A DNA stretch of 8,348 nt from DRGV01 sp018903055 [NCBI: bacterium]. GTDB lineage: Bacteria > UBP18 > UBA7526. The first letter of the stretch is position 1; the number at the start of each line of letters is the position of its first letter. Positions 2 to 8,243 of this stretch are shown in pieces. Made by a program: the position numbers and the translations under genes. The notes below the pieces were generated by a model. The model ran no database searches, was not told the origin of the DNA, and saw only the letters and a program-made list of their open reading frames with translations. The stretch spans positions 1-8,348 of the forward strand of contig JAHIPW010000083.1 of assembly GCA_018903055.1 (NCBI GenBank), in the 5' to 3' direction.

Positions 2-133
2 TCCCCAGAGACGAAAAGAATAGGAGAGAATCTAATTAAGAAAGAATTGGAGAAGATTCCCCAAAGACGCAAGCAGGTAGTTAAAAAAAGACTGGCCAAA
101 ATAAGAGAAGGCGAGAGGGATCTCTATTTCTAA
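2..133 (+). CDS. C-terminal fragment of a small basic/acidic helical protein, possibly anti-sigma-28 factor FlgM (5' end outside window)
   Basis: The reading frame is open from the window edge to TAA at 131-133 and gives 43 residues rich in Lys, Arg and Glu. The stretch RRKQVVKKRLAKIREGE resembles the C-terminal FlgM pattern (R..KV..lk..I..G.Y), which binds and inhibits the flagellar sigma factor FliA. In FlgM this is followed about ten residues later by a short helix of the type 'iAeKL'. Here that helix (ISKEISEKL) is present with the right spacing, but in the frame one base over, from about 120 onward, so the gene may carry a one-base insertion in the GGG at 117-119. The stop lies at the edge of a palindromic repeat block. 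The identification rests on a short tail and is tentative; an unrelated small protein with a natural stop at 131 is possible. Confidence 0.4.
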   Translation, partial: SPETKRIGENLIKKELEKIPQRRKQVVKKRLAKIREGERDLYF

Positions 134-150
134 AGAGATATCTGAAAAAC

Positions 151-373
151 TCACGGATTCAGACAGATTTGAGCGGATTCACCCCGCACCTTTTTAGAAA
201 GTAATTCCTGAAAAGGCAAAGGTGCGGGGTTCAAACGGATAAACCATCGAAAAGAAGTTTCCGTCTGCATCCGCCATAATAAAGACGCCTCCGCTTCGCG
301 AAGAACTTTGTTATTCCAGCGCGTCTTTATTAGACAGGGCAAGTGAAACGCGCTATCATAATCCGTTTGCATC
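151..373. repeat. Palindromic intergenic repeat block 1
   Basis: This gene-free stretch contains nested inverted repeats. ACCCCGCACCTTT (181-193) pairs perfectly with 218-230. CGGATTCAGAC (154-164) pairs 10/11 with 263-273. TAATAAAGACGC (277-288) pairs perfectly with 321-332 and encloses the small palindrome CTTCGCGAAG (294-303). CAAACGGAT (232-240) is the complement of 361-369. CGGATTCA also occurs as a direct repeat at 154 and 174, a 20-nt period. The part from about 277 to 373, read on the minus strand, is related to 7281-7388 on the plus strand (shared TTCACTTGCC, GTCTAA, AACAA.GTTCT, GCGAAGC). No protein is supported here; the minus-strand open frame across the block is produced by the palindromes. 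Confidence 0.75.
331..359 (+). promoter_or_regulatory. Putative sigma70-type promoter of hydE-hydF
   Basis: TAGACA (331-336, 5/6 to TTGACA) is followed after a 17-nt spacer by TATCAT (354-359, 5/6 to TATAAT). Transcription would start near 366, about 30 nt before the hydE ATG and upstream of its AGGAG. The -35 hexamer overlaps the right arm of the 277-288/321-332 palindrome, so the promoter seems to be built from repeat DNA. Prediction from motifs only. Confidence 0.5.
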
Positions 374-394
374 TTTTTCAGGAGTTTCATCTTG

Positions 395-1399
395 ATGGAG
401 AGAAAAGAGATTATAGAGCGATTAAAAGAAGGAAGCCCGGAGGAACTCTTTAAGGAAGCAGACCGGGTGCGAAAAACCTACCTTGATGATGAAGTCCATA
501 TTAGAGGCATAATTGAATTTTCTAATTACTGCTGTCGGAGTTGCTTATATTGTGGTTTACGTCGGGAAAATGAAAATATTCGCCGGTACCGGATGTTACC
601 TGATGAAATAATAAAATTAGCAAACGAGATAACTCAATGCGGGGTAAAAACTATTGTTTTGCAATCCGGAGATGATTTCGGATTTAGCCAAAAGGTGCTT
701 TGTAGGATTATAGAGAAAATAAAGGAAGAAAATCCGGAGATTGCTATAACTCTATCTATAGGGGAAAGGCCACTCGATGACTATAAAGCCTTCAAAGATG
801 TCGGGGCTGATAGATATTTATTAAAACATGAAACGGCAAACCTCAAACTTTACGAAAGATTTCACCCTGGACAGACACTAAAAAGAAGACTCCAAATTCT
901 GGAATATCTTAAAAAGTTAGATTATCAAATAGGTGCGGGCAACATTGTAGGTTTACCAAATCAAACCTTGGAAGATTTAGCAGATGATATTTTACTTATG
1001 AAGAGATTGGATGTCGATATGGCAGGAATTGGACCATTTATTTCTCAGAAAGATACCCCTTTGCGTAACCATCCTTCGGGCAATTTAGATTTGACTTTAA
1101 AGGTTTTAGCCTTAACAAGAATAGTTACTAAATATACTCACCTGCCCGCTACTACTGCTCTGTCCACCCTAAATCCCACGTATGGTCAGGTTTTGGCTTT
1201 TAGGTCTGGGGCAAATGTCATTATGCCCGATTTTACCCCGGAAGAAGAGCGAAAAAATTATATTATTTACGATAATAAAACAAGGGTAGATTTAGAAAAA
1301 GCAAAGACAATAATTCTTGAGGCCGGAAGGAAAATTTCCACTGCACGAGGAGATTCTTTAAAATGGAAAAGACACCAAAAGGCATTCGCCTCCATATAG
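395..1399 (+). CDS. hydE: [FeFe] hydrogenase H-cluster radical SAM maturase HydE
   Basis: HydE is a cytoplasmic radical S-adenosylmethionine enzyme that works with HydG and HydF to build the diiron subcluster of [FeFe] hydrogenase; it acts on the cysteine-ligated iron synthon made by HydG. The protein is about 334 residues, close to the usual 340-350. The radical-SAM motif Cx3Cx2C is at residues 46-53 (C-CRS-C-LY-C), within the characteristic context IIEFSNYC...CGLRREN. Further HydE-like segments are SGDDFGF, the SIGERPLDDY strand, KHETAN..LYERFHPG, GNIVGLPNQT, GIGPFI and the C-terminal NPTYGQ...GANVIMPDFTP. AGGAG at 380-384 precedes ATG 395; a TTG at 392 directly abuts it and would add one Met. 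The 3' end overlaps hydF by 37 nt, which implies translational coupling. hydG is not adjacent. Confidence 0.95.
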   Translation: MERKEIIERLKEGSPEELFKEADRVRKTYLDDEVHIRGIIEFSNYCCRSCLYCGLRRENENIRRYRMLPDEIIKLANEITQCGVKTIVLQSGDDFGFSQKVLCRIIEKIKEENPEIAITLSIGERPLDDYKAFKDVGADRYLLKHETANLKLYERFHPGQTLKRRLQILEYLKKLDYQIGAGNIVGLPNQTLEDLADDILLMKRLDVDMAGIGPFISQKDTPLRNHPSGNLDLTLKVLALTRIVTKYTHLPATTALSTLNPTYGQVLAFRSGANVIMPDFTPEEERKNYIIYDNKTRVDLEKAKTIILEAGRKISTARGDSLKWKRHQKAFASI

Positions 1400-6895: not shown

Positions 6896-7173
6896 TGGCT
6901 CAGATTACGGTTCGTTTTTATACTACCCTGCGGGAGAAGGTAGGGAAGAGCAAGGTCTCCCTGGATGCCCCTACCGTGGCCCAGGCCTTAGAGGAGTTGA
7001 AGAGGCAGTTTGGTTCTCGATTTACCGATCAGCTCTATAATTCCGACGGAACGATAAAGAATTATTATATCCTCCTCCTCTCTGGTCGTAGCGTGGATAG
7101 GAAAGAGATTAAAAAGACCGCTTTGAAAGAAGGAGATATTTTACACATCTTTCCCCCTATTGCTGGCGGCTAA
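6895..7173 (+). CDS. MoaD/ThiS-family ubiquitin-like sulfur carrier
   Basis: This 92-residue beta-grasp protein ends in PPIAGG, the exposed Gly-Gly tail that an E1 enzyme adenylates and a sulfurtransferase converts to thiocarboxylate. The family pattern is clear: an N-terminal strand ITVRFYTTLREKVGKSKV, the helix TVAQALEELKRQFG (27-40), ILLLSGRSVD (59-68) and the LKEGDILHIFPPIAGG end (77-92). MoaD donates sulfur for molybdopterin; related carriers serve tungsten pterin, thiamine or other thiolations. The E1 partner is probably the product of 5119-5991. The start is GTG at 6895, supported by GGAGG (6883-6887) 7 nt upstream and by one-base overlap with the previous stop. It is the last gene of the operon. 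Confidence 0.92.
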   Translation: MAQITVRFYTTLREKVGKSKVSLDAPTVAQALEELKRQFGSRFTDQLYNSDGTIKNYYILLLSGRSVDRKEIKKTALKEGDILHIFPPIAGG

Positions 7174-7442
7174 TACGCAGATTTACGCCCTTCAGGATCC
7201 CGAGAATCCTTTCCCTCGACCCCGAATGGGGTCTCGGGACGAGAACCCCAGAGGGGCAGGATCCGAGGGGCAGATCAAAACGCAGATGGGCGCTGATTTA
7301 CGACGACGCACTTCACTTGCCTCGTCTAAATAAGAAGTAAACAAGGTTCTGCGAAGCAGGTTCTTATTTATCAGCGGTAATCAGCGGTCCTTAAAGCCCA
7401 AGCAGTAAGCAGTAAAAAGAAATCCGCGTCTTGGGGGTTTAA
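7174..7442. repeat. Palindromic intergenic repeat block 2
   Basis: There is no supported gene in these 269 nt. The left part (7193-7264) has CAGGATCC as a direct repeat at 7193 and 7257, TCCCGAGA (7198-7205) complementary to TCTCGGGA (7232-7239), and an inner hairpin ACCCC-GAAT-GGGGT (7219-7232). The middle part has a 10-bp stem TAAATAAGAA (7327-7336) with 7361-7370 enclosing CTGC-GAA-GCAG (7349-7359). Short direct repeats follow: CGCAGAT at 7176 and 7281, GATTTACG at 7180 and 7295, TCAGCGGT at 7371 and 7381, AGCAGTA at 7401 and 7408. The section 7281-7388 is related to the minus strand of repeat block 1. No clear promoter for sufC was found in it. Confidence 0.75.
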
Positions 7443-8243
7443 ATGTTAGAAGTAAAAAACTTGAGACTGACTCTAAATGGACACCCCGTACTACGGGGAA
7501 TAAATCTTGTAGTTAAGAAGGGTGAGATTCACACCATCTTAGGAGTGAATGGCGCAGGCAAGAGTTCCTTAGCCTACTGCCTTATGGGGAGTGAAGGTTA
7601 TCGGCCGCAGGAAGGAATAATTAAGTTTCTGGGAAAAGATATTACCAATCTCTCCATTACCGAGAGGGCGAGGATGGGATTGACCCTCGCCTGGCAGGAA
7701 TCAGCAAGGTTTGAGGGACTATCAGCAAGAGAATATCTCTCTTTGGGGATTTACCCCGTTAGAAATAATCCGACCCCAAAGGGGACGGATGCCTCACCTT
7801 TAGTGAGGATTTCTAATGGGGTGGGAAATAGGGAAGATAGCAAGAGGATAGCCCACGCTTTAGAGTTAGTTGCCTTAAATCCCAAAGAGTTCTTGGATCG
7901 GGCAGTGGATAATACCCTCTCTGGAGGAGAGAGAAAGAGGATTGAACTGGCCAGTGTAATTGCTATGAGACCCAAGTTAGCCATACTCGATGAGCCGGAC
8001 TCCGGGATCGATATGCTCTCTCTCGATGATATCCTGAATGTTATAAAGAGTATGAGGAAGGAGGGAAGTACCATACTCCTTATTACCCATCGGGAAGAGA
8101 TGGCCTCCATCTCTGATAGGGCATCCTTGATGTGTGATGGCTTGATTCTTAAGACAGGAAAGCCAAAGGAGGAGATGGACTACTTTAAGTTACACTGTAA
8201 ACCATGTCCCACCCATAAGTTTCCTGGTAAACTAAAGGAGTAA
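7443..8243 (+). CDS. sufC: SufC, ABC-type ATPase of SUF Fe-S cluster assembly, with an in-frame repeat insertion
   Basis: SufC is a cytoplasmic ABC ATPase that works with SufB/SufD to assemble Fe-S clusters. Visible motifs: Walker A GVNGAGKSS (34-42), Q-loop LAWQES (Q85), signature LSGGERKR (159-166), Walker B LAILDEPDSGID (179-190) and H-loop ITHRE (H216). DEPDSGID and THKFPGKL near the end are SufC-like rather than transporter-like. The protein has 266 residues, about 20-25 more than usual. The excess is residues about 104-128, encoded by a palindromic element, between the Q-loop and the signature motif; the frame is kept, so the ATPase may still work. GGGGG (7433-7437), 5 nt before the ATG, is a plausible ribosome binding site. 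The next gene, SufB/D-like, starts 4 nt after the stop. Confidence 0.9.
   Translation: MLEVKNLRLTLNGHPVLRGINLVVKKGEIHTILGVNGAGKSSLAYCLMGSEGYRPQEGIIKFLGKDITNLSITERARMGLTLAWQESARFEGLSAREYLSLGIYPVRNNPTPKGTDASPLVRISNGVGNREDSKRIAHALELVALNPKEFLDRAVDNTLSGGERKRIELASVIAMRPKLAILDEPDSGIDMLSLDDILNVIKSMRKEGSTILLITHREEMASISDRASLMCDGLILKTGKPKEEMDYFKLHCKPCPTHKFPGKLKE
7753..7822. mobile_element. In-frame palindromic element within sufC
   Basis: ACCCCGTTAGAAAT (7753-7766) pairs with ATTTCTAATGGGGT (7809-7822) over 14 positions, with one G-T wobble (7758/7817). Inside are two further hairpins: ATCCG/CGGAT (7768-7772/7786-7790) with CCCC-AAA-GGGG (7774-7784), and CCTCAC/GTGAGG (7792-7797/7803-7808) with loop CTTTA. 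The whole can fold as a three-way junction. It has no stop in the sufC frame and adds a polar, loop-like segment beginning YPVRNNPTPKG. The structure and its position in a surface-type region of an ABC ATPase recall protein-coding palindromic elements such as the Rickettsia RPEs; membership in any named family is not shown. Confidence 0.7.

What the first reader, a model, noticed from the sequence alone, without database searches (positions are those of the whole stretch)
7753..7822. Three-way-junction palindrome translated in frame inside sufC
Seen: 14-bp near-perfect outer arms, two inner hairpins, no in-frame stop, and a SufC that is about 20-25 residues too long exactly here. Known: Rickettsia palindromic elements insert in frame in essential genes and are translated. 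Inferred: this is a mobile or once-mobile element that tolerates being coded in a conserved ATPase, between the Q-loop and signature motif. The other half of the interest is whether the RNA hairpin affects sufC translation.
Basis: partly seen in the sequence, partly recalled or inferred. Interest (0 to 1): 0.75.

Follow-up and report, generated by a model that had tools for sequence, protein, structure and literature searches.

The report
Translated three-way-junction transposon in sufC
A 68-base palindromic jumping element sits inside an iron-sulfur-cluster ATPase gene without breaking it, and it belongs to an apparently undescribed element family, found in many uncultured bacterial phyla, whose copies inside genes keep the reading frame and so are probably translated as part of the host proteins.

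Summary
The element is at 7754-7821: 13-bp arms, two inner hairpins, open frame. Three same-family genomes have the same ATPase gene without it. It is not alone: 107 arms (up to one mismatch) lie in this 1.09-Mb genome against 22 for the reversed pattern, and a model of it matches in 6 of 6 genomes of the phylum. A strict pattern also hits contigs whose titles bear about ten other phylum-level names.

Identical 4-mers (TNAA type) flank 65 of 111 copies from that scan, against about 9 by shuffling, so it is a non-autonomous inverted-repeat transposon (MITE-like). Inner stems differ between copies yet pair in 91 and 88% of cells. Where a 55-72-bp copy interrupts a long frame, 32 of 32 keep it, murA and an ftsW/rodA-like gene among the hosts. 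In this phylum junction-type copies have 3n+2 length also outside long frames (23 of 26), so element plus duplication adds 3n.

Closest known kind: Rickettsia palindromic elements. New here: a clear 4-bp duplication, hairpins stepped by three, cross-phylum spread. No transposase found.

The parts
7443..8243 (+). sufC-like (MJ0035/SmsC-type) ABC ATPase gene, 266 codons, carrying the insertion
7754..7821 (+). 68-bp mobile palindromic element (three-way junction), read in frame as part of YPVRNNPTPKGTDASPLVRISNGVG
7754..7766 (+). left terminal inverted repeat, CCCCGTTAGAAAT
7768..7790 (+). hairpin 1 (23-nt module)
7792..7808 (+). hairpin 2 (17-nt module)
7809..7821 (+). right terminal inverted repeat, ATTTCTAATGGGG
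7750..7753 (.). left flanking 4-mer TTTA, presumed decayed target-site duplication
   Evidence: 72-bp difference from the empty site = 68 + 4; only 1 of 4 letters matches the right flank
7822..7825 (.). right flanking 4-mer TGGG, presumed decayed target-site duplication
   Evidence: aligns with TGRR at the three empty sites

Best explanation
The segment is a small non-autonomous transposable element that inserted into the sufC-like gene. SHOWN: it belongs to a dispersed family with conserved 13-bp terminal inverted repeats and 4-bp target duplications of TNAA type; orthologous sites are empty in relatives; the interior of this class is two hairpins that, with the arms, make a three-way junction kept by paired changes; in this phylum the commonest layouts use 17-, 20- or 23-nt hairpins, so element plus duplication adds a multiple of three; copies of this size inside long frames left the frame open in every case tested. 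INFERRED: a cut-and-paste transposase acting in trans recognises the inverted repeats and makes staggered cuts 4 bp apart; the insert is translated with its host as a disordered surface loop (residues 108-127 have pLDDT below 50 in an otherwise confident ATPase model) and is tolerated, because insertions that shift or stop the frame of needed genes are lost. The stem structure is probably required for, or produced during, replication or transposition as single-stranded DNA. Whether the mRNA fold changes sufC expression is unknown.
For: Empty sites: sufC in 3 relatives; murA filled in G005, empty at that site in 5 relatives; the ftsW/rodA-like gene filled in both species of the window's genus, empty in 4 others. 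Copies. Target duplication: 65 of 111 exact, shuffled mean 9.0, maximum 17; agreement is high only at a size of four. Structure on 13 own copies: 94.3% of 387 cells paired (arms 100, hairpins 91.2 and 88.5%), 15 of 31 pairs with changes on both sides, 0 of 500 shuffles reach either value. Frame: 32 of 32 copies of 55-72 bp kept the frame; 81 other copies lay in no long frame. MurA: net insert of 22 residues against solved MurA. Model: mean pLDDT 84.5, pTM 0.82, insert below 50.
Against: The window copy's own flanks match at 1 of 4 letters. Exact duplications are seen in only 25 of 67 family arm pairs. One of the five pair measures, further pair types, is reached by 59 of 500 shuffles. No transposase was recognised between arms in the DNA in hand (by reading, no family search of those frames). 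IS1380 transposases (PF13701) were not found in any of the 6 family genomes, some of which are incomplete. No expression or peptide data.
Confidence: 0.87

Rival explanations
1. The segment is removed from the product: the ribosome bypasses the hairpin, or the RNA is excised, so the protein lacks it.
For: Compact, stable RNA structure; mobile bypassed hairpins are known in yeast mitochondria (recalled). In the 73-84-bp class 3 of 7 copies in long frames shift the frame (L099, L123, L250); L250 looks like a gene-start insertion, the other two are unexplained.
Against: Bypass or excision needs no frame and no absence of stops, yet 32 of 32 copies of 55-72 bp in long frames add a multiple of three and are stop-free in the frame tested, and 20 of 20 on the stricter setting.
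Confidence: 0.04
2. A natural length difference of the sufC loop, not a mobile element.
For: Distant SufC-type homologues have an extension of up to a dozen or so residues at the same site.
Against: The seven closest homologues in the alignment lack it, and the same arms occur across the genome and in other phyla.
Confidence: 0.01
3. The family is mainly regulatory (terminators, RNA-stability or 5' leader signals) that moves about, and the copies in genes are accidents.
For: Most copies are not in long frames: 81 of 113 of 55-72 bp. Elements are rarer in frames than random windows: 17 of 54 of 60-72 bp against 61%. The 73-84-bp class is enriched at gene starts: 18 of 38 supply an in-frame ATG against 7.3% of 661 random windows. 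In other phyla junction-type copies outside frames show little or no excess of 3n+2 length: 14 of 35.
Against: The junction class of this phylum keeps 3n+2 length in 23 of 26 copies outside long frames and 11 of 11 inside.
Confidence: 0.2
4. The paired stems come from hairpin-templated repair of imperfect palindromes, not from selection for the structure.
For: Stems vary in sequence while staying paired; such repair yields paired changes (recalled). In the ftsW/rodA-like orthologues hairpin 2 differs by 6 nt and is still a hairpin in both.
Against: Hairpin sizes and one-base junctions are very regular: (1,17,1,17,0) in 13, (1,23,1,17,0) in 6 and (1,17,1,20,0) in 6 of 40; repair alone does not explain steps of three.
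Confidence: 0.35

Closest known systems
Rickettsia palindromic elements (RPE) and the Wolbachia palindromic repeats
   Same: Short palindromic mobile elements inserted in frame in conserved protein genes and between genes (reviews: PMC10969869 section 13 read, PMC2229807 passages; Wolbachia from a reference title there).
   Different: RPEs are given as 105-146 bp, with the duplication marked '?' in the table of PMC2229807. Here: mostly 62-71 bp, a clear 4-bp TNAA duplication, a three-way junction of modular hairpins sized in steps of 3, and contigs with about ten phylum-level names, none titled Rickettsia in the list.
[quoted passage not shown]
   Same: Terminal inverted repeats, target duplications, no transposase gene, high copy number.
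   Different: Most bacterial ones are said to end in TA and to be A+T-rich (PMC2229807 passage); this one ends in CCCC/GGGG, duplicates 4 bp, and is frame-neutral inside genes.
REP/REPIN (RAYT-linked) palindromes
   Same: Small, structured, high copy.
   Different: Those are not flanked by duplications (recalled) and bear GTAG- or CGTC-type tags (PMC3733652, title and abstract start seen in a listing); here 4-bp duplications and inverted-repeat ends.
piggyBac / IS1380 transposons
   Same: CC-rich ends, 4-bp A+T-rich duplication (recalled).
   Different: TTAA was not among the 65 exact duplications (one TTAA case in the own genome, L021). No IS1380 transposase was found in the 6 family genomes; around the eight PF13701 matches elsewhere only three-mismatch look-alikes of the arms were seen, mostly single.

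Membership tests
MITE (non-autonomous TIR element) | terminal inverted repeats | tested here: met
   13-bp arms in 110 distinct matches and in the own genome
MITE (non-autonomous TIR element) | target-site duplication of fixed size | tested here: met
   4 bp, 65 of 111 exact; 25 of 67 arm pairs in the family; not exact in the window copy
MITE (non-autonomous TIR element) | no transposase gene; related autonomous partner shares the ends | tested here: inconclusive
   elements are too small to code for one; no partner recognised
MITE (non-autonomous TIR element) | filled and empty orthologous sites | tested here: met
   sufC, murA, ftsW/rodA-like
Rickettsia palindromic element | in-frame insertion in conserved protein genes | tested here: met
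   32 of 32 of 55-72 bp in long frames
Rickettsia palindromic element | sequence kinship with RPE families | not tested
   no RPE sequence was fetched; size and hosts differ from those in PMC2229807
Translational bypass element | insert skipped, so frame and stops do not matter | tested here: not met
   0 of 32 copies of 55-72 bp shift or stop the frame; 3 of 7 of 73-84 bp do
IS1380/piggyBac derivative | cognate transposase with the same ends | tested here: not met
   0 of 6 family genomes; 5 of 21 others over the cut-off. Arms with up to 3 mismatches: lone look-alikes at a few of the eight loci, and at L203 (below the cut-off) one on each side that do not match each other
Known structured RNA (Rfam) | match at gathering score | tested here: not met
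   0 matches in the window

The most novel reading that the evidence does not exclude
A cross-phylum family of mobile DNA that has itself evolved to be translation-neutral. In one class, hairpin modules sized in steps of three, with many stop-free frames, make insertion plus duplication a multiple of three, so it drops portable peptides (PVR...SNGV or PLE...LTG) into essential enzymes. A sister class with the same ends carries its own leader and start codon and settles on gene starts (ATGAA), replacing the N-terminus. Such elements would be a general source of new protein loops and N-termini in uncultured bacteria.
Probability: 0.4. Interest if true: 0.9.

Novelty: new variant of a known kind. 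Interest (0 to 1): 0.77.

Why it matters
In the reviews read here, protein-coding palindromic elements are described for Rickettsia (and, by a reference title, Wolbachia). A family with the same behaviour, clear target duplications and a recognisable architecture in many candidate phyla makes two open questions testable: how mobile DNA becomes tolerated inside essential genes, and whether it feeds new loops and N-termini into proteins. It also warns annotators that conserved enzymes of these phyla can carry foreign peptides, and similar copies in different phyla may trace gene flow in subsurface communities. My seven literature searches listed no paper that, by title and abstract start, describes this repeat; most listings were partial (for instance 20 of 48), the 4 papers holding an arm-like string were not opened, and the held library lacks most subscription journals.

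Tried and rejected
IS1380/piggyBac partner: considered because of CC-rich ends and 4-bp duplication; not borne out. Long arm pairs as autonomous transposons: one search gave nine pairs over 500 bp with identical flanking 4-mers; their frames, read by eye (eight pairs; L016, a ribosomal-protein-L3-like frame), looked like ordinary genes, not transposases; no family search was run on them. One search (unpaired arms) gave only L207, a tilS-like region with non-identical flanks. Integron attC: the arms resemble GTTRRRY only in reverse order (recalled motif) and 4-bp duplications do not fit. Frame counts that require an open frame (27 of 111, all 3n+2, recounted: 22 of 22) are biased by construction, so the empty-site test was made. 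In that test the window copy entered through its antisense frame, because deleting the mismatched right 4-mer makes a stop in the sense frame. 73-84-bp class in the same test: 4 kept, 3 frameshifted.

Rows dropped before counts: 2 of 113 pattern matches (duplicate or short flank; the 111 left include L178, which is a family genome); 14 of 111 with under 300 bp on a side; 3 of 40 family and 5 of 52 other junction-type copies with under 200 bp on a side (frame part); L206; L178. Part of the printout was cut; counts were made by script.

Full report
What is there. The window is contig 67 of a 1,085,295-base genome of 191 contigs, 85% complete; its phylum holds only 6 genomes in the collection, one family, three genera. 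One relative, G003, has a contig of the same length and element as a public record titled only 'bacterium isolate CSMAG_2709' (L178). The gene at 7443-8243 codes for a SufC-like ATPase of 266 residues, closest to MJ0035 among solved proteins. At 7754-7821 lies a 68-bp element: arm, one unpaired A, 23-nt hairpin, one unpaired G, 17-nt hairpin, arm.

It is an insertion. Three same-family genomes (G002, G003, G004) encode the protein at 90-91% identity in 242 residues (G004 has a C-terminal extension besides) and lack precisely 72 bp; 72 = 68 + 4. The genus mate G001 (53% complete) and G005 (75%) gave no close orthologue, so the age within the genus is unknown. Walker, Q-loop, signature and H-loop regions (names recalled) are intact in the alignment. 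AlphaFold2 with 19 sequences gives a confident ATPase (mean pLDDT 84.5, pTM 0.82) with residues 108-127, most of the insert, below 50.

It is one of a family. The arm pattern with up to one mismatch occurs 53 + 54 times in the own genome against 13 + 9 for the reversed pattern. A covariance model of 13 own copies finds matches in 6 of 6 family genomes (28 to 97 at E up to 1; both strands counted, only 150 candidates a genome scored, the 13 members included); the strict pattern finds 5 of 6, none in G002. Sixty-seven non-identical arm pairs were read from the family loci then in hand; some are nested or overlapping. Besides the junction class there are arms-only copies (26-32 bp) and long ones (94-158 bp).

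It is a transposon of the inverted-repeat kind. Of 111 usable copies (one, L178, from this family), 65 have identical 4-mers on both sides (shuffled mean 9.0, maximum 17); per-position agreement is 0.76-0.83 at size four and at most 0.49 at the other sizes tested; commonest duplications are TAAA 24, TGAA 18, TCAA 10, each counted with its reverse complement. Prevalence is patchy: 18 of 379 genomes of the phylum of a Portnoybacterium, 5 of 6 in the window's phylum, 1 of 35 other bacterial families. Horizontal movement is suggested by an own copy (L012, G000:C80, a 3.2-kb contig) whose interior is 95.6% identical to three copies in an Elusimicrobia genome (shuffled best 0.59); mis-binning of that short contig is not excluded.

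Structure. On 13 own copies, aligned by sequence, 94.3% of 387 cells pair (arms 100%, hairpins 91.2 and 88.5%), 15 of 31 pairs have changes on both sides, and the covariation score is 0.362 against 0.131 in shuffles and at most 0.090 when slid; the number of further pair types is not exceptional (59 of 500 shuffles reach it). The structure was drawn from folds of these copies, which favours it. Of 43 distinct family elements of 55-84 bp, 40 fold as a three-way junction; the commonest layouts are (1,17,1,17,0) 13, (1,23,1,17,0) 6, (1,17,1,20,0) 6, with (1,23,1,20,0) once. Of 128 in other lineages, 52 do so by the same loose criterion, several of them start-type elements.

Frame. In the family, 39 of 40 arm pairs of 50-85 bp have length 2 modulo 3; with loci fetched later 39 of 43 of 55-84 bp. 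Among junction-type copies with room to test, 11 of 11 in long frames and 23 of 26 outside them do; in other lineages 12 of 12 and only 14 of 35. So frame neutrality is built into the copies of this phylum, perhaps by descent from few masters, but not evidently into those of all lineages. In an empty-site test not biased by the open frame itself, 32 of 32 copies of 55-72 bp that interrupt a long frame keep it; 81 of 113 interrupt none, and 60 of those 81 are also 2 modulo 3. With 43% of their frames stop-free the naive chance is 0.32 per copy; copies are not independent. Other sizes: 26-40 bp 2 of 2 kept, 73-84 bp 4 of 7, 85-160 bp 2 of 2. Reading frames are PVR...SNGV in 24 and PLE...LTG in 8 of 32, the window copy being counted in its antisense frame.

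Other host genes. murA of G005 carries a 62-bp copy plus 4 bp, empty in five relatives, a net 22-residue insert against solved MurA. The ftsW/rodA-like gene (name from my reading) has the element at the same place in G000 and G001 and not in G002-G005; hairpin 2 is 23 nt in one and 17 nt in the other, so an old insertion changed by six bases with the frame kept. A moaA-like gene carries a 98-bp copy. PepP-, TolC-, geranylgeranyl-reductase- and radical-SAM-like hosts are named from my reading.

Start class. Of 38 copies of 73-84 bp with room, 18 hold an ATG in frame with a following frame of at least 80 codons, against 7.3% of 661 random windows; 15 of 22 start-type copies have an inner half-arm like TAACGGGG, where shuffles give about 0.14 each. 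Of these 22, 17 have exact duplications and 12 of those are TGAA on the coding strand, as if the target were an ATGAA start; the right end GGGG plus TGAA then rebuilds a GTG in frame (from the sequence).

Known or new. It works like the Rickettsia palindromic elements (reviews PMC10969869, section 13, and PMC2229807, passages); the original papers were not read (one look-up failed). Membership in that family was not tested by sequence. As a MITE it meets the defining features tested except a known partner transposase.

Noticed in passing
L100, L106, L163, L188 and others; L206 3245-3324: A sister class (73-84 bp, same arms) sits on gene starts and supplies an in-frame ATG, so proteins begin M...ISNGVK; one lies in a viral contig with Mu-A/Mu-B-like frames (my reading)..
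   Followed up: partly
L282 461-526 (G004 murA): A different 66-bp in-frame insert, strongly folded, in another place of murA, absent from five relatives and with no match in other genes among held loci: perhaps a second kind of coding insert.
   Followed up: partly
L010 209-317: A tRNA-Val gene (225-301) lies just between a left and a right arm (209-221, 305-317), as if carried by an element; the flanks (CTTG, TGAA) do not match.
   Followed up: no
window 130-400, 2600-2830, 7170-7445: The intergenic spacers hold other dispersed repeats with matches in other loci of this genome and family.
   Followed up: no
L210 369-474 and L212 300-406; L017 and L019: Long-type arm pairs whose non-hairpin interiors look alike, by eye, in two loci each.
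   Followed up: no
G046 and G047 (Elusimicrobia; Nealsonbacteria): High load: 34 + 31 exact arms in 2.4 Mb, with many pairs of 71 or 74 bp, and 69 + 76 arms in only 0.7 Mb (counts only).
   Followed up: no
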